A stretch of DNA of 52,936 bases, taken from positions 1 to 52,936 of the forward strand of contig NZ_JACJJP010000025.1 of assembly GCF_016900095.1 (NCBI RefSeq), read 5' to 3'. This document shows positions 18,899-48,297 of the stretch, piece after piece. The notes below the pieces were generated by a model. The model was not told where the DNA came from and did no database searches. It was given only the letters and a program-made list of their open reading frames with translations. Source of the stretch: Gemmiger formicilis (GTDB taxonomy: Bacteria > Bacillota > Clostridia > Oscillospirales > Ruminococcaceae). A program made the position numbers and the translations under genes. Positions within the stretch are counted from its first letter, which is position 1; every line of letters starts with the position of its first letter.

Positions 18899-19248
18899 AA
18901 GAACTGGTGTGCATCGTCTGTCCCCGGGGCTGCCGCCTGCAGGTGGATGAGCAGAACGGCTACGCCGTCACCGGCAACAGCTGCCCCCGGGGGGCCGAGT
19001 ACGGCAAAAACGAGCTGCAGCACCCCACCCGGGTGCTGACCACCACCGTGCGGGTGACCGGGGGCGTGCACTGCCGTCTGCCGGTCAAGACCAGCACGGC
19101 CATCCCCAAAGACCTGCTGTTTGACGCCATGAAGGTGGCCGACGCCGTCTGCGTGGCGGCGCCGGTGCAGCCCGGGCAGGTGATTGTGGAGAATCTGCTG
19201 GGCACCGGGGCGGACCTCATCGCCGGGCGGGGAATTGAAATGGCGTAA
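18895..19248 (+). CDS. DUF1667 small Fe-S protein of the glycerol-3-phosphate dehydrogenase set
   Basis: 117 residues. Begins MKELVCIVCPRGCRLQV and has Cys6, Cys9, Cys13 and Cys30, a likely iron-sulphur ligand set (CxxCxxxC plus C). The remainder is a small beta-rich domain ending in LLGTGADLIAGRGIEMA. DUF1667 proteins are regularly encoded after the GlpA-like and FAD/NAD genes and are presumed to relay electrons in place of GlpC; that role is inference from gene order. Translation is coupled to the previous gene. The stop codon lies inside a short direct repeat linked to the next repeat element. Confidence 0.87.
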   Translation: MKELVCIVCPRGCRLQVDEQNGYAVTGNSCPRGAEYGKNELQHPTRVLTTTVRVTGGVHCRLPVKTSTAIPKDLLFDAMKVADAVCVAAPVQPGQVIVENLLGTGADLIAGRGIEMA

Positions 19249-19260
19249 CGTTCCCCTTGA

Positions 19261-19398
19261 GCCTCCCCTGTGTAAGGGGAGGTGCCGCGCAGCGGCGGAG
19301 GGGTTGTGAAGCCGGATCTGTTTTCCGTTCACGGGCAATGGCGGAACGTTACCAACCCCTCAGTCAGCTTCGCTGACAGCTCCCCTTACACAGGGGAG
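19261..19398. repeat. MITE-like palindromic repeat, copy 1
   Basis: Its two ends carry a 19-base sequence (19264-19282 and 19380-19398) that is a perfect inverted pair; each end is also self-complementary (CTCCCCT / AGGGGAG). The first 50 bases (19261-19310) recur at 45869-45918 with two differences. Inner segments GGGGTTG and CAACCCC also pair. Small non-autonomous palindromic elements of this kind sit in intergenic spaces of related genomes, as I recall. No coding potential. Confidence 0.8.
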
Positions 19399-43615: not shown

Positions 43616-45045
43616 TGATTCTGGAACATATTGGTCTGAGCCAGATCAACGGCTCCCTGGTTGTGCTGGATGATGTGCCCGGCGTCAGCTACGACGAGGT
43701 CGTGGAGCTGCGCCTGGACAACGGCACCACCCGCACCGGCCGTGTGGTCATGGTGGAAGAGAACCGCTGTGTCATCCAGGTGTTTGAGGGCTCTTCCGGC
43801 CTGAGCCTGGTCAACACCCGCACCGTGTTTACCGGCCATCCCATGATGATGGACCTTTCGCCCGAACTGCAGGGCCGTATTCTGGACGGCCTGGGCCGCC
43901 CCATCGACGGCCAGGGCGATATCTACCCGGTGGCCCGCCGCGACGTGAACGGCGCCCCCATCAACCCGGTCAGCCGTGTGTATCCCCGGAACTACATCCA
44001 CACCGGCATTTCTTCCATCGACTGCCTGACCACCCTGATCCGCGGCCAGAAGCTGCCCATCTTCTCCGGGTCCGGCATGCGCCACAATGAGCTGGCCGTG
44101 CAGATCGTGCAGCAGGCCAGCGTGTCCGACGGTTCCGACTTCGCCATCGTCTTTGCCGCCATGGGCGTCAAGAACGACGTGGCCGAGTACTTCCGGGATT
44201 CCTTTGTCAGCACCGGCGCCATGGACCGGGTTGTCATGCTGCTGAACCTGGCCAACGACCCCATCATCGAACGTATCATCACCCCCCGTGCCGCTCTGAC
44301 CGTGGCCGAGTATCTGGCCTTCGACCTGGGCAAGAACGTGCTGGTCATCCTCACCGATATGACCAGCTACTGCGAGGCTCTGCGTGAGTTCTCCTCCTCC
44401 AAGGGCGAGATCCCCGCCCGTAAGGGCTTCCCCGGCTACCTGTACTCCGACCTGGCCAGCCTGTACGAACGGGCCGGCATCATCAAGGGCAGCACCGGTT
44501 CTGTGACCCAGATTCCCATCCTGACCATGCCCGGCGACGACATCACCCACCCCATCCCCGACCTGACCGGCTACATCACCGAAGGCCAGATCGTGCTGGA
44601 CCGTGCCATGGACGCCACCGGCATCTATCCCCCCGTGGCGGTTCTGCCCAGCCTGTCCCGTCTGATGAAGGACGGCATCGGCGCCGGCTACACCCGTGAC
44701 GACCACGTCACCCTGGCCAACCAGCTGTTTGCCTGCTACGCCAAGGTGCAGGACGCCAAGGCACTGGCCAGCGTCATCGGCGAGGAAGAACTGTCCGAGA
44801 GCGACAAGCTGCTGATGCAGTTCGGCCGCGAATTCGAACACCGGTTCATCGGCCAGGGCAACACCAACCGCACCATGGAAGAGACCCTGGACCTGGGCTG
44901 GGAACTGCTGGCCGGGCTGCCCCGCGCCGCCCTGGACCGCTGCGACGACCAGCCCCTGGACACCTACTATGAGCCCGCCCGCAAGCGCCGCCAGCAGCGC
45001 CAGCAGGCCCTGCTGAACGCCCAGCCGGCGCCCCAGGCGAAATAA
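43615..45045 (+). CDS. ntpB: V-type ATP synthase regulatory subunit B
   Basis: 476 residues. Non-catalytic nucleotide subunit: [13 protein letters not shown], degenerate P-loop [76 protein letters not shown] and [19 protein letters not shown]. It starts at the TAATG overlap with subunit A, which helps keep the 3:3 ratio. Confidence 0.97.
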
Positions 45046-45086
45046 TGGCGTACCAACAACATTCCGGCAAAGGCAGGTGATTCATC

Positions 45087-45698
45087 GTGCAGCAGGTATT
45101 TCCCACAAAATCCAACCTGATGGCCACCAAGCGCAGCCTGGCGCTGGCCGAGCAGGGCTATGAACTGATGGACCGCAAGCGCAACATTCTGGTGCGCGAG
45201 ATGATGCGCCTGATCGACCGTGCCGCGTCGATCCAGGACAAGATCAGTGCGTCCTACGCCGAAGCCTACGACGCCTTGCAGCGCGCCAACATCACGCTGG
45301 GCTCGGTGGGCGAGTTCACGGCCAGTGTGCCGGTGGAACATGGGCTGAACATCGAGCGCCGCAGCGTGATGGGCGTGGAACTGCCCACCGTCACCCTGGA
45401 CCCCAGCGCCCCTCTGGGCCTGTATTACGGCCTGGAATCCACCAACGGACTGCTGGACGCCGCCTACCTCAAGTTCAACGAGGTCAAGAAGCTGACCGTG
45501 GAACTGGCCGAGGTGGAAACCAGCGTCATTCGTCTGGCGGAAGCCATCCGCAAGACCCAGAAGCGCGCCAACGCCCTGGGCAACGTGCAGATCCCCCAGA
45601 TGGAAGCCACCGTCAAGTTCATCGACGATGCGCTGTCCGAGAAGGAACGGGAAGAGTTCAGCCGCCTCAAGGTCATCAAGAACCAGAAAAACAAATAA
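45087..45698 (+). CDS. ntpD: V-type ATP synthase central-stalk subunit D
   Basis: 203 residues, GTG start (AAAGGCAGGTGATTCATC upstream). Long antiparallel helices with the family N-terminus PTKSNLMATKRSLALAEQGYELMDRKRNIL and C-terminus RRVNALExxxIP-like KRANALGNVQIPQMEATVKFIDDALSEKEREEFSRLKVIKN. It is the rotating shaft within the A3B3 ring. Last gene of the operon, followed by a terminator. Confidence 0.95.
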   Translation: MQQVFPTKSNLMATKRSLALAEQGYELMDRKRNILVREMMRLIDRAASIQDKISASYAEAYDALQRANITLGSVGEFTASVPVEHGLNIERRSVMGVELPTVTLDPSAPLGLYYGLESTNGLLDAAYLKFNEVKKLTVELAEVETSVIRLAEAIRKTQKRANALGNVQIPQMEATVKFIDDALSEKEREEFSRLKVIKNQKNK

Positions 45699-45708
45699 CT
45701 GCTTTTTC

Positions 45709-45747
45709 GGCCGCCGGTCCCGTGTGGGGCATGGCGGTCTTTTTTTG
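45709..45747 (+). terminator. Terminator of the ATP synthase operon
   Basis: Stem GCCGCCGG-TCCC / GGGG-CATGGCGGT with GTGT loop, followed by T8. Confidence 0.9.
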
Positions 45748-45750
45748 CCC

Positions 45751-45866
45751 GGGCGGCTATGCCGCCCGATGGCGCACAGCGCCATGCAAAAAAAGCAACG
45801 CGCAGCGTTGGTTCCGAAATCGGTCGGCCGCGAAAAGCGGCCCATGGTCCGGGGCAGCAGCCCGGA
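45751..45866. repeat. Train of five perfect hairpins
   Basis: Consecutive inverted repeats: GGGCGGC-TAT-GCCGCCC (45751-45767), ATGGCGC-ACA-GCGCCAT (45769-45785), CAACGC-GCA-GCGTTG (45796-45810), GGCCGC-GAAAA-GCGGCC (45826-45842) and TCCGGG-N7-CCCGGA (45848-45866). All have very short loops. No gene is plausible here. It forms the left part of a 770-base non-coding region with other structured repeats. Confidence 0.7.
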
Positions 45867-45868
45867 AA

Positions 45869-45918
45869 GCCTCACCTGTGTAAGGGGAGGTGCCGCGCAG
45901 CGGCGGTGGGGTTGTGAA
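45869..45918. repeat. Palindromic repeat, copy 2 (partial)
   Basis: 48 of 50 bases identical to 19261-19310. Only this left end is present; the 19-base inverted right end found in copy 1 is missing. Confidence 0.85.
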
Positions 45919-45948
45919 CCCTGCCCTGTTTTATGTTTCGGAGAATCT

Positions 45949-46130
45949 GGCGGGCGGGTGCCTGCCGGGAAGCTGTCGCTTTTTGGCGTCAAAAAGCGAC
46001 GGAAAAACCGCCACCGTTTCGATGCGGTGGACGCCGACCAGGGCTGCGGCCCTGGACCCGGGGTGTGCGGCCACCTGACGACGGCCTACTCAGGTCCTGG
46101 GGGACCTGAGCAAGGAAGATTTTTTAAAAG
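45949..46130 (+). repeat. Multi-hairpin element, copy A
   Basis: Five hairpins in order: GGCGGGC-GGGT-GCCTGCC (45949-45966), TCGCTTTTT-N6-AAAAAGCGA (45976-45999), CCACCG-N8-CGGTGG (46011-46030), CCAGGGC-TGCG-GCCCTGG (46038-46055) and CTCAGGTCC-TGGG-GGACCTGAG (46089-46110), ending in CAAGGAAGATTTTTTAAAA. A 22-base unpaired-looking block (46066-46087) is identical in copy B. Stem sequences differ between copies while pairing is kept. Confidence 0.8.
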
Positions 46131-46191
46131 CCATAAGAGGAAGTCTGTCGCAACCCATGGTCTGCCCTTAGCAGCTGTTGTTGGGAAATGG

Positions 46192-46368
46192 TTTTAAAAT
46201 TTTTCCTTGTTCACCGGCCCCCAGGCCGGTGAAGAGGCCGTCGTCAGGTGGCCGCATCTTGGGGTCTGGGGCCGCAGCCCCAGCCGGCGGCCGCCGCATC
46301 GGAACGGCGGGACTTTTCGCTTCCTTTTGGTCACAAAAGGAAGGACTTCCCCGCAGACTCTTGTCTGC
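46192..46368 (-). repeat. Multi-hairpin element, copy B (inverted)
   Basis: Read on the minus strand it has the same five hairpins as copy A: GCAGAC-AAGA-GTCTGC (46353-46368), CTTCCTTTT-N6-AAAAGGAAG (46320-46343), CCGCCG-N8-CGGCGG (46291-46310), CTGGGGC-TGCG-GCCCCAG (46266-46283) and TTCACCGGCC-TGGG-GGCCGGTGAA (46210-46233), ending CAAGGAAAAATTTTAAAA. Loops TGCG and TGGG and the 22-base block (46235-46256) are identical to copy A. The two copies are 61 bases apart in opposite orientation. Confidence 0.8.
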
Positions 46369-46442
46369 CAGAAAGCACCCAACCAACCAAAAAGAAAACC
46401 AGCCGCCTTCCGGCAAAAGCTGCCCTTTTCCGCCGCGGCCCC

Positions 46443-46515: not shown

Positions 46516-48297
46516 ATGGAAACGATGGGCAATCTGCGCCGCACCAACTATTGCGGCGAAGTCAGCCTGGCCGACGCGGGCAAGGAGATGACCGTTTGCG
46601 GTTCCATCGCCCGTGCCCGTGACAAGGGCGGCATCATCTTTGCCGACCTGCGGGATACCACCGGCATTTTGCAGATGGTCTTTGACGAGGACACGCCCAA
46701 GGACGTCTTTGCCAAGGCCGAAAGCCTGAAGAGTGAATATGTGGTCATTGCCCGGGGCACCCTGCGGGAGCGCGCCGCCAAGACCGATAAGATCGCCACC
46801 GGCGATGTGGAACTGTATGTGAGCGAACTGCGGGTGCTGAGCGAAGCCCAGACCCCGCCCTTCGAGATCCGGGACGGCATCAACGTCAACGATGATCTGC
46901 GCCTGCGCTACCGCTACCTGGACCTGCGCCGCCCGTCCATGCACGAGCCCATCGTGCTGCGGTCCAAGATCTGCCAGGTGGTGCGCAACTACTTCTACGA
47001 CCAGCATTTCTGCGAGATCGAGACCCCCACCCTGATCAAGTCCACCCCCGAAGGCGCCCGTGACTATCTGGTGCCCAGCCGTGTGCAGCCTGGCCACTTC
47101 TACGCCCTGCCCCAGAGCCCCCAGCTGTACAAGCAGATCCTGATGCTCTCCGGCTTTGACCGGTACTTCCAGGTCGCCCGCTGCTACCGCGACGAGGACC
47201 TGCGCGCCGACCGTCAGCCCGAGTTCACCCAGATCGATGAGGAGCTGTCCTTCGTCACCGAGGACGACATCATGACCATCAACGAAGGGCTCATCAAGCG
47301 TCTGTGGAAGGAAATCCTGAACATCGACGTGCCCACCCCCTTCGTGCGTATGCCCTGGGATGAGGCCATGAGCCGCTTCGGCTCCGATAAGCCGGATACC
47401 CGCTTCGGCCTGGAGATCCAGGATGTGAGCGGCGTCTTTGCCGGTACCGGCTTCAAGCCCTTCGCCGATGCCCTGGCCGCCGGCGGCACCATTCGTGCCA
47501 TCAACGCCAAGGGCATGGCCGACCGCCTGACCCGCAAGAACATCGACAAGCTGGGCGAGGTGGCCAAGACCTACGGTGCCAAGGGCCTGGCGTACAGCCG
47601 CCTGACCGCCGAGAGCACCACTTCCAGCTTTGAAAAGTTCCTCACCGAGGAGGAAAAGACCGCCCTGTACCAGGCTCTGAATGTGGAGACCGGGGACGTG
47701 GTGCTGCTGGTCAGCGACACCGACTGGGTGCGCGCCTGCACCGCCCTGGGCCAGGTCCGCCTGGAGATGGGCCGTAAGTACGAGCTCATCGACAAGGACG
47801 CCTTCAACTTCCTGTGGGTGGTGGACTTCCCCCTGTTTGAGTACAGCGAGCAGGAAGGCCGCTGGATGGCCATGCACCATCCCTTCACCATGCCCAAGCC
47901 GGAAGACCTGGACAAGGTGGAAAGCGACCCCGGTGCCTGCCGTGCCCTGGCGTACGACATCGTGCTCAACGGTGTGGAGCTGGGCGGCGGTTCCATCCGC
48001 ATCAACGACCCTGCCCTGCAGGACCGCATGTTCCACGCCCTGGGCTTCACCGAGGAGAAGGCCCGCGAAAGCTTTGGCTTCCTGATGGATGCCTACAAGT
48101 TCGGTGCACCCCCCCACGGCGGTATGGCCTACGGCCTGGACCGTCTGGTCATGCTCATGCTGAAGAAGGATTCCATCCGGGATGTCATCGCCTTCCCCAA
48201 GGTGCAGAACGCCGGCGAACCCATGTCCGGTGCGCCCGACGTGGTGGACCCCAAGCAGCTGCAGGACCTGTCCATCGCCCTGGTGGACAACCACTGA
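46516..48297 (+). CDS. aspS: Aspartyl-tRNA synthetase
   Basis: 593 residues, the long bacterial type. N-terminal OB-fold anticodon-binding domain (about 18-105, ADLRDTTGILQMVFDED), class II motif 1 near CEIETPTLIKSTPEGARDYLVPSR, motif 2 FQVARCYRDEDLRADRQPEFTQIDEELSF, a GAD insertion (about 280-400), and motif 3 GMAYGLDRLVMLMLKKDSIRDVIAFPK. It charges tRNA(Asp); whether it also charges tRNA(Asn) depends on GatCAB, which is not seen here. Ribosome site AGGGGATAGAGAGTT precedes ATG. Confidence 0.97.
   Translation: METMGNLRRTNYCGEVSLADAGKEMTVCGSIARARDKGGIIFADLRDTTGILQMVFDEDTPKDVFAKAESLKSEYVVIARGTLRERAAKTDKIATGDVELYVSELRVLSEAQTPPFEIRDGINVNDDLRLRYRYLDLRRPSMHEPIVLRSKICQVVRNYFYDQHFCEIETPTLIKSTPEGARDYLVPSRVQPGHFYALPQSPQLYKQILMLSGFDRYFQVARCYRDEDLRADRQPEFTQIDEELSFVTEDDIMTINEGLIKRLWKEILNIDVPTPFVRMPWDEAMSRFGSDKPDTRFGLEIQDVSGVFAGTGFKPFADALAAGGTIRAINAKGMADRLTRKNIDKLGEVAKTYGAKGLAYSRLTAESTTSSFEKFLTEEEKTALYQALNVETGDVVLLVSDTDWVRACTALGQVRLEMGRKYELIDKDAFNFLWVVDFPLFEYSEQEGRWMAMHHPFTMPKPEDLDKVESDPGACRALAYDIVLNGVELGGGSIRINDPALQDRMFHALGFTEEKARESFGFLMDAYKFGAPPHGGMAYGLDRLVMLMLKKDSIRDVIAFPKVQNAGEPMSGAPDVVDPKQLQDLSIALVDNH

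What the first reader, a model, noticed from the sequence alone, without database searches (positions are those of the whole stretch)
45949..46368. Two inverted copies of a five-hairpin element with compensatory base changes
Copies A (plus) and B (minus) share order, spacing and loops (TGCG, TGGG) of five hairpins and an identical 22-base block, yet the stems differ in sequence and keep pairing. Examples: CCACCG/CGGTGG versus CCGCCG/CGGCGG; CCAGGGC/GCCCTGG versus CTGGGGC/GCCCCAG; CTCAGGTCC/GGACCTGAG versus TTCACCGGCC/GGCCGGTGAA; TCGCTTTTT/AAAAAGCGA versus CTTCCTTTT/AAAAGGAAG. Such covariation points to selection on a folded RNA or on cruciform DNA. Each copy ends in an A/T tract. It could be a mobile structured RNA, a processed small RNA family or a transposable palindromic unit. 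I know of no named family that fits.
Basis: seen in the sequence. Interest (0 to 1): 0.85.

Follow-up and report, generated by a model that had tools for sequence, protein, structure and literature searches.

The report
Inverted pairs of pseudoknotted mobile repeats
A gut bacterium of the Gemmiger group carries dozens of copies of a non-coding repeat that comes in mirror-image pairs and folds into hairpins with two interlocking contacts, and whose pairing stays nearly exact, more as a DNA fold would than as a typical RNA fold does.

Summary
The window copies (A 45946-46130 +, B 46192-46372 -) are one inverted pair of a dispersed, non-coding repeat family. Model matches: 42 in this genome, 49 and 56 in two close relatives, 14 of 35 genomes of the genus; a second model finds it in 13 of 126 genera of the family, some weakly. 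Neighbouring full arms face each other in 43 of 44 cases. Over 95 arms 99.7% of cells pair. Two contacts not in the finding also covary (H2 loop with a 3-nt tail; H3 loop with a downstream base) and recur in genomes not used to find them.

Changes are nearly all Watson-Crick: 3 G-U cells of 1,235 at variable pairs (55 of 1,330 if RNAalifold's extra H5-tip pair is counted), against 230 of 1,048 for RNase P RNA of the genus. This favours a fold of single-stranded DNA, or function on both strands, over an ordinary RNA. Hairpins switch as whole alleles. One whole pair is present in one species and absent in its neighbour, beside a T-run.

Best reading: a REPIN-like non-autonomous mobile DNA element with pseudoknotted ends and an unknown enzyme. 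No Rfam match; no description in the papers searched. Folding strand and mobility are inferred.

The parts
45946..46130 (+). Arm A of the inverted pair (outer end 45946, inner end about 46130)
   Evidence: query; covariance-model hit 46011-46115
46192..46372 (-). Arm B of the inverted pair
   Evidence: C17:46192-46372:-; covariance-model hit 46205-46310
45949..45966 (+). Arm A hairpin H1 (outermost, variable; holds one G-T pair)
   Evidence: sequence, fold
45975..46000 (+). Arm A hairpin H2, A/T-rich tip, loop GCGT 45986-45989 (allele that does not match its tail CCG)
46001..46010 (+). Arm A A-rich linker and 3-nt tail (46008-46010) that in most other arms pairs with the H2 loop
46011..46030 (+). 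Arm A hairpin H3; loop base 46019 (T) covaries with 46037 (A)
46038..46055 (+). Arm A hairpin H4
46066..46087 (+). Arm A 22-nt conserved core (short GGCC/GGCC hairpin)
46089..46110 (+). Arm A hairpin H5 (most variable stem), followed by CAAGG
46116..46204 (.). Spacer between the arms
46210..46233 (-). Arm B hairpin H5
46235..46256 (-). Arm B conserved core
46266..46283 (-). Arm B hairpin H4
46291..46310 (-). Arm B hairpin H3 (loop C pairs with downstream G)
46320..46343 (-). Arm B hairpin H2, loop TGAC complementary to its tail GTC
45087..45698 (+). Upstream neighbour: third gene after two ATPase subunit genes, taken as V-type ATPase subunit D (name recalled, not scanned)
   Evidence: ORF list
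46516..48297 (+). Downstream neighbour: aspartyl-tRNA synthetase-like gene (name recalled, not scanned)
   Evidence: ORF list; DNA matches in 31 of 35 genus genomes

Best explanation
This is a non-autonomous, non-coding mobile DNA element. Its unit is two ~185-nt arms in inverted, facing orientation around a spacer (62-249 bp between matched arms). Each arm, as a single DNA strand, folds into a fixed array: H2 locked by a loop-tail pseudoknot, H3 locked by a loop-downstream contact, then H4, core and H5. The fold is the recognition signal for an enzyme supplied in trans, which inserts the pair in intergenic DNA just after T-runs or terminators. Copies then exchange whole hairpin alleles by gene conversion. 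Shown: dispersal, facing pairs, the fold and both extra contacts by covariation, rarity of G-U, whole-allele differences at orthologous loci, one clean presence/absence of a whole pair. Inferred: that the folding strand is DNA, that the pair moves as a unit, that exchange is by gene conversion, and that an enzyme reads the fold.
For: Facing pairs: 43 of 44 neighbouring pairs of full arms within 600 bp, 1 tandem, 0 back-to-back. Intergenic: 0 of 58 clusters overlap a gene call. Whole-pair presence/absence next to a T7 run, G010 L097 against G000 L398. T-run of 5 in the outer flank of 78 of 112 arms, A-run in 16 of 112; about 10% each in random 85-mers. Terminator-like sequence outside 35 of 102 arms, 8 of 102 on the other strand, 103 of 3,000 random. 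Fold: 99.7% of 2,755 cells paired, covariation 0.339 against 0.123 shuffled and 0.116 at best slid. Across 10 genomes: 121 double-change cells, 0 one-sided. H3-loop contact: 190 of 193 parsed of 200 arms, sorting independently of the stem it is threaded through. H2-loop contact: 8 of 13 distinct types with a 4-nt loop exact, 1.08 expected, 0 of 100,000 shuffles as high. Out of sample: 10 of 14 parsed of 16, and 7 of 7 parsed of 16. DNA-like: G-U 3 and A-C 2 of 1,235 variable cells against G-U 230 and A-C 6 of 1,048 in RNase P; one-sided against two-sided changed cells 2 to 377 in arms, 106 to 37 in RNase P. Orthologous loci: 61 paired positions changed on both sides, 4 on one, over 17 arm comparisons.
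Against: No mobility gene was identified. The Y1 transposase family is not found in several element-rich genomes. No pair with a coding middle among those held, but no directed search was made. No target duplication is evident in the one clean empty site. Four other orthologous sites without the element hold other repeats, in one genome a shorter H1-H2 remnant, not clean empty sites. The arms are not independent, so cell counts overstate events. The H2-loop contact fails in all 27 arms with a 4-nt loop and tail CCG, window arm A among them, and overall 34 of 186 parsed arms do not show it. One tip pair of H5 that RNAalifold adds is T-G in 52 of 95 arms, and a T-G closes the H3 loop in all 95. 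Listed copies in this genome sit on few contigs, unlike a freely dispersing element.
Confidence: 0.5

Rival explanations
1. A structured RNA family: arms are transcribed (as small RNAs or 3' UTR ends) and the RNA fold is selected. G-U pairs are avoided because both strands are transcribed and must fold.
For: Pseudoknots and an A-rich linker beside the H2 stem look RNA-like. Terminator-like sequence lies outside arms more often in the sense than the antisense direction (35 against 8 of 102). Convergent gene gaps hold 24 of 58 clusters, against 22 of 176 gaps of any size and 9 of 37 gaps of 300 bp or more. RNAalifold's extra H5-tip pair is T-G in 52 of 95 arms.
Against: G-U at 0.2% of variable cells (4% with RNAalifold's own structure) against 22% for RNase P in the same genus, and 0 one-sided changes across 10 genomes. 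No Rfam match. Arm orientation is not fixed relative to neighbouring genes.
Confidence: 0.22
2. The exact pairing is mutational, not selected: template switching inside hairpins copies one stem half onto the other, and gene conversion spreads the corrected hairpins.
For: Almost no intermediates. Whole hairpins differ at orthologous loci. One H5 hairpin is present in flipped orientation (L089:9877-9980).
Against: It cannot explain the loop-tail and loop-downstream contacts, whose partners are not the two halves of one hairpin.
Confidence: 0.13
3. A true REPIN/REP system mobilised by a REP-associated tyrosine (Y1) transposase.
For: Inverted doublets with a spacer, extragenic, hairpin-forming, with compensatory changes, as described for REPINs (PMC3116915: abstract and passages seen). 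Y1 transposases exist in G000, G009 and G010.
Against: No conserved tetranucleotide at the H2 foot (commonest 15 of 97; GTAG anywhere in 9 of 97 arms). Y1 found in none of the element-bearing G021, G007, G012, G032 and G033, several of them incomplete. Among the 12 Y1 loci fetched (not all Y1 places) the only arm hit is 12 bits at E 4.5. Arms are about 185 nt rather than 20-50.
Confidence: 0.1

Closest known systems
REPINs / REP-BIME elements, as described in Pseudomonas, E. coli and others (passages of PMC3116915, and PMC8266576)
   Same: Non-coding, extragenic, inverted doublets with a spacer; hairpins in single-stranded DNA; compensatory changes; many copies per genome.
   Different: Arms several times longer, with five or six hairpins and two pseudoknot contacts; no GTAG-type foot; no consistent Y1 transposase.
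MITEs / foldback elements (recalled)
   Same: Inverted terminal arms, no coding capacity, presence/absence in intergenic DNA.
   Different: Arms are structured arrays of short hairpins rather than plain inverted repeats; no target duplication or parent transposon seen.
Ends of IS200/IS605-family elements (passages of PMC8266576)
   Same: Folded single-stranded DNA with extra pairing outside the hairpin that selects the cleavage site.
   Different: Those guide contacts join a tetranucleotide 5' of the hairpin to the cleavage site; here a hairpin loop pairs with a 3' tail.
BOX elements of Streptococcus pneumoniae (recalled)
   Same: Modular, hairpin-rich, intergenic.
   Different: As recalled, no pseudoknot contacts and not arranged as facing pairs of full units.

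Membership tests
REPIN / REP (RAYT-associated) | Doublets in inverted orientation with a spacer, extragenic | tested here: met
   43 of 44 neighbouring pairs of full arms facing; 0 of 58 clusters overlap a gene call
REPIN / REP (RAYT-associated) | 20-50 nt palindrome preceded by a conserved tetranucleotide, mostly GTAG (PMC8266576) | tested here: not met
   GTAG in 9 of 97 full arms; commonest 4-mer at the H2 foot 15 of 97; arms about 185 nt
REPIN / REP (RAYT-associated) | Y1 transposase (RAYT) in element-bearing genomes | tested here: not met
   PF01797 in 19 of 35 genus genomes but none found in element-bearing G021, G007, G012, G032, G033; these assemblies are 81-98% complete
REPIN / REP (RAYT-associated) | Single-strand cleavage and transfer by the transposase | not testable with these tools
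   needs biochemistry
MITE | Inverted ends, no coding capacity, insertional presence/absence | tested here: met
   only one clean empty site
MITE | Target-site duplication | tested here: inconclusive
   none evident in the one clean empty site
MITE | Ends shared with an autonomous transposon | not tested
   no arm pair with a coding middle among those held (spacers 62-249 bp), but no directed search was made
Structured RNA (Rfam family) | Match at gathering score to a curated family | tested here: not met
   0 matches in the whole window and in 16 relative loci
Structured RNA (any) | Strand-asymmetric tolerance of G-U over A-C pairs | tested here: not met
   3 G-U against 2 A-C of 1,235 variable cells with the named structure; RNase P control 230 against 6 of 1,048. 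With RNAalifold's structure of the arms 55 G-U against 3 A-C of 1,330, nearly all in one H5-tip pair

The most novel reading that the evidence does not exclude
A widespread class of bacterial mobile element whose ends are recognised as a pseudoknotted fold of single-stranded DNA, kept by covariation at nearly exact Watson-Crick level across genera of a bacterial family, and moved by an enzyme not yet known.
Probability: 0.33. Interest if true: 0.85.

Novelty: new variant of a known kind. Interest (0 to 1): 0.62.

Why it matters
Covariation is normally read as evidence of a functional RNA. Here strong covariation, including two pseudoknot contacts that hold out of sample, comes with very little G-U wobble, which a same-genus RNase P control suggests is abnormal for RNA. 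If the fold is DNA, structured-RNA searches may be mislabelling DNA folds, and the G-U against A-C ratio is a simple test to tell them apart. It also gives a concrete hunt: which enzyme moves and reads these elements in gut bacteria of this family.

Tried and rejected
Coding origin: several frames overlap the arms on both strands (for example 45628-46197 +, 189 aa, and the end of 44967-45992 -, 341 aa), but the codon-usage caller puts no gene there or over any of 58 clusters; no protein search was made. Known RNA: Rfam at gathering score and at permissive score (7 matches, E 0.41-8.3, all far below gathering). Hammerhead: the core holds CTGACGA, which resembles the hammerhead box (recalled), but the G is T, A or C in other arms, so dropped. 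Y1 transposase link: no clean link. Regional clustering explained by replication position: 40 windows of G026 showed too little synteny; left open. Mixed assembly as cause of clustering: contig C9, without known copies, matches G033, G010 and G009 at 82-88%, but C7 shares 6.4 kb at 99.6% with G026; not excluded. Literature: searches are search listings of open-licence PMC papers; none listed describes this element by title or abstract start. Only passages of PMC3116915 and PMC8266576 were read; the papers on bacterial structured-RNA discovery listed were not opened.

Rows dropped: A2 used 77 of 112 core hits (11 short, 2 with N, 21 nested or without clean H2-H3, 1 duplicate). A3 used 95 distinct arms of 110 hits at 100 bits or more (7 unparsed, 8 repeats). 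A5 used 24 of the 34 arms listed. One search compared 17 of 22 listed orthologous arms (5 had no row in A3). One search used 58 of 87 clusters (both neighbours held). The permutation used the 13 loop/tail types with 4-nt loops; 7 further types with loops of other lengths (one arm each, one complementary) were left out. In one search, 14 of 16 were parsed for the first contact and 7 of 16 for the second; one of the seven (G332) does not look like a true H3. The H2 and H4 parser prefers near-perfect stems, so the G-U argument rests. A3 rows were chosen with a pattern that admits G-T and A-C at the variable H3 position; in A5, H3 and H4 were part of the model that found the relatives, H2 and both extra contacts were not. 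In the large searches only the best 11-20 candidates per genome were scored, so absences there are weak.

Full report
What is there. The window lies between a V-type ATPase operon end and aspS (names recalled; ORFs). Between them sit two inverted, facing arms, 45946-46130 (+) and 46192-46372 (-). Each arm and the whole pair fold much better than shuffles.

It is a repeat family. In the window's own genome (3.26 Mb, 98 contigs) blastn gives 53 pieces, with 40 of 81 first-look candidates scored, and a covariance model 42 matches. The 21-nt core occurs in 5 of 61 genomes, all of the same genus, with 0 hits for the reversed control. In an independent collection the contigs of these relatives, recognised by their lengths, are titled uncultured Gemmiger sp. 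(G009, G010, G033) and Faecalibacterium sp. UBA1360 (G032). With the covariance model 14 of 35 genomes of the genus have matches at E 0.01 or less: G009 56, G010 49, G021 49, G000 42, G025 29, G007 22, G005 19, G033 9, G032 8, G012 7, and 1 to 3 in four others. In a sample of the taxonomic family the same model finds 3 of 197 genomes. A second model, built across species of the genus, finds 18 of 347 family genomes in 13 of 126 genera, the own genus included, and 3 of 197 genomes of the order, the own genome included. Several of the weaker ones (G332, G261, G319, G320, G449) do not look convincing in sequence.

Architecture. Of 140 arms in the held stretches 120 are full, 11 are H2-H3-only halves and 9 are other fragments. 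There are 44 neighbouring pairs of full arms within 600 bp: 43 facing, 1 in tandem, none back-to-back. The spacer between matched arms is 62-249 bp, median 80; 34 full arms are unpaired, 8 of them near a sequence end. A miniature H1-H2-H3-H2'-H1' sits at the same V-ATPase/aspS site in G009, while G010 carries the same full pair upstream of aspS as the window. None of the 58 clusters with two neighbours held overlaps a gene call. Convergent gene gaps hold 24 of 58 clusters, against 22 of 176 gaps in general and 9 of 37 gaps of 300 bp or more; divergent gaps hold 9 of 58, against 24 of 176 and 14 of 37. The outer side of arms is marked by a T-run (78 of 112, against 16 of 112 for A-runs and about 10% of random 85-mers) and in a third of cases by a terminator-like hairpin plus T-run (35 of 102, against 8 of 102 on the other strand; in 33 pairs, 6 on both sides, 13 on one, 14 on neither). 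At one locus G010 has the whole pair and G000 has none, at a T7 run, with flanks aligned on both sides. At four other loci the genome lacking the full element holds other repeats, in G009 at one of them a shorter H1-H2 remnant.

The fold. In 95 distinct arms (H3 to H5 plus the H3-loop contact, 29 pairs) 99.7% of 2,755 cells pair. The covariation score is 0.339 against 0.123 in shuffles (0 of 500 as high) and at most 0.116 when partners are slid; 377 cells changed on both sides, 2 on one. In 24 arms from 10 genomes (H2, H3, H4 and both contacts) 96.8% of 694 cells pair, with 121 double-change cells and no one-sided change.

Two contacts were not in the finding. First, three bases of the 4-nt H2 loop pair with the three bases just before H3. 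Allele pairs are GAC/GTC, GCC/GGC, CAC/GTG, AAC/GTT, CGC/GCG and CAG/CTG. By arm, 152 of 186 parsed show it. By distinct type, 8 of 13 types with a 4-nt loop match exactly, 1.08 expected, none of 100,000 shuffles as high. The failing types are the four with tail CCG (27 arms, window arm A among them) and one TCCC/GAG. Second, the third H3 loop base pairs with the base after a downstream CG: T-A 124, C-G 66, other 3, unparsed 7 of 200 arms. This contact is threaded through the H3 stem yet sorts independently of it: among 77 arms, 6 have an A-T stem with the C-G contact and 5 a G-C stem with the T-A contact. Simple block inheritance does not give that. Out of sample, 16 hits outside the training genomes (two from the genus, the rest from other genera) were found by a model without these contacts. 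The first contact is present in 10 of 14 parsed (3.3 expected, none of 20,000 shuffles as high). The second is present in 7 of 7 parsed, one of them doubtful, and now includes G-C pairs never seen in the training set.

DNA or RNA. With the structure named here, in the 13 variable pairs of the 95 arms 3 of 1,235 cells are G-U and 2 are A-C. In RNase P RNA of 30 genomes of the genus, with a structure predicted by RNAalifold, 230 of 1,048 variable cells are G-U and 6 A-C. Against this reading: RNAalifold's own structure for the arms adds three pairs. One closes the H3 loop and is T-G in all 95 arms. One at the tip of H5 is T-G in 52, C-G in 40 and T-A in 2. Counted that way 55 of 1,330 variable cells are G-U. 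Whether these tip pairs form is unknown. By kind of change, arms have 2 one-sided and 377 two-sided cells, RNase P 106 and 37. So the arms largely lack the mark that a folded RNA leaves. Either the folding molecule is DNA, or both strands must fold. H1 was not in these counts and has a G-T pair in window arm A.

How it varies. Hairpins come in a few alleles that are mixed between copies. At orthologous loci with 81-94% identical flanks, 17 arm comparisons show 61 paired positions changed on both sides and 4 on one side, beside 111 of 987 unpaired positions; a three-genome set of single arms showed no paired change. This looks like gene conversion, and it means that cells are not independent events. 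Template switching could produce such exact stems without selection, but not the two loop contacts.

Mechanism. The most likely reading is a REPIN-like non-autonomous mobile DNA element whose folded single strand is the substrate of a trans-acting enzyme that targets T-runs after genes. It works like a REPIN: inverted doublets, extragenic, hairpins in single-stranded DNA, compensatory changes (PMC3116915, abstract and passages seen). It is not filed as one: the tetranucleotide foot described for REPs (PMC8266576, passages) is absent. A Y1 transposase is not found in several element-bearing genomes (19 of 35 genus genomes have one; none found in G021, G007, G012, G032 or G033), though these assemblies are 81-98% complete.

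Limits. No expression, mobility or binding data exist here. Only one clean empty site was seen. The copies cluster: the G000 matches listed lie on 8 of 98 contigs and on 6 in the part of the list shown. Of 40 further pieces fetched, 29 from contigs without known hits and 11 from gaps between hits, none held a copy. This is unexplained.

Noticed in passing
window 45736-45858: A second structured repeat (palindromes around GCCCGGGCGGCTATGCCGCCC, CAACGCGCAGCGTTG and GGCCGC..GCGGCC) stands next to the element; the same or a similar sequence is found inside some arms of other copies in place of part of H4 (for example L071, L075, L085, L107).
   Followed up: partly
window 45870-45914 and about 19230-19390: A third repeat family (CCTCCCCTGTGTAAGGGGAGGTGCCGCGC... 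and its partner), also seen in facing pairs; in G000 it occupies sites where relatives carry the element.
   Followed up: partly
G000 contigs C14, C16, C17, C22, C24, C25, C34, C39: Listed copies are confined to these contigs; 29 pieces from contigs without known hits held none. Position on the chromosome could not be determined.
   Followed up: partly
L089:9877-9980 (-): One H5 hairpin has the loop CCCA where most others have TGGG: the hairpin is flipped as a whole, a hint of DNA-level inversion or template switching.
   Followed up: no
H2 and following linker (window 45991-46007): The number of A's in the linker after H2 seems to match the number of A's in the H2 tip (3, 4, 5 or 6) across species, as if length or a triplex-like contact were constrained (read by eye; not tested).
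   Followed up: no
window 46031 (A3 column 21): The base after H3 is A with the A-T stem allele (41 of 42 arms) and C with the G-C allele (35 of 35) although it has no pairing partner in the model.
   Followed up: no
arms with tail CCG, for example window 45986-46010: All 27 arms with a 4-nt H2 loop and tail CCG (loops CCGC 13, GCGT 12, ACGT 1, TCGT 1) lack the exact loop-tail contact yet are common in one clade; they may use another register.
   Followed up: no
G407:C200 5797-5866 (+) and 6385-6456 (-), loci L465 and L467: A weak facing pair of the same kind lies in a genome of another family of the order (E 7.5e-4 and 8.8e-4); the loop-tail contact is present in one of the two.
   Followed up: partly
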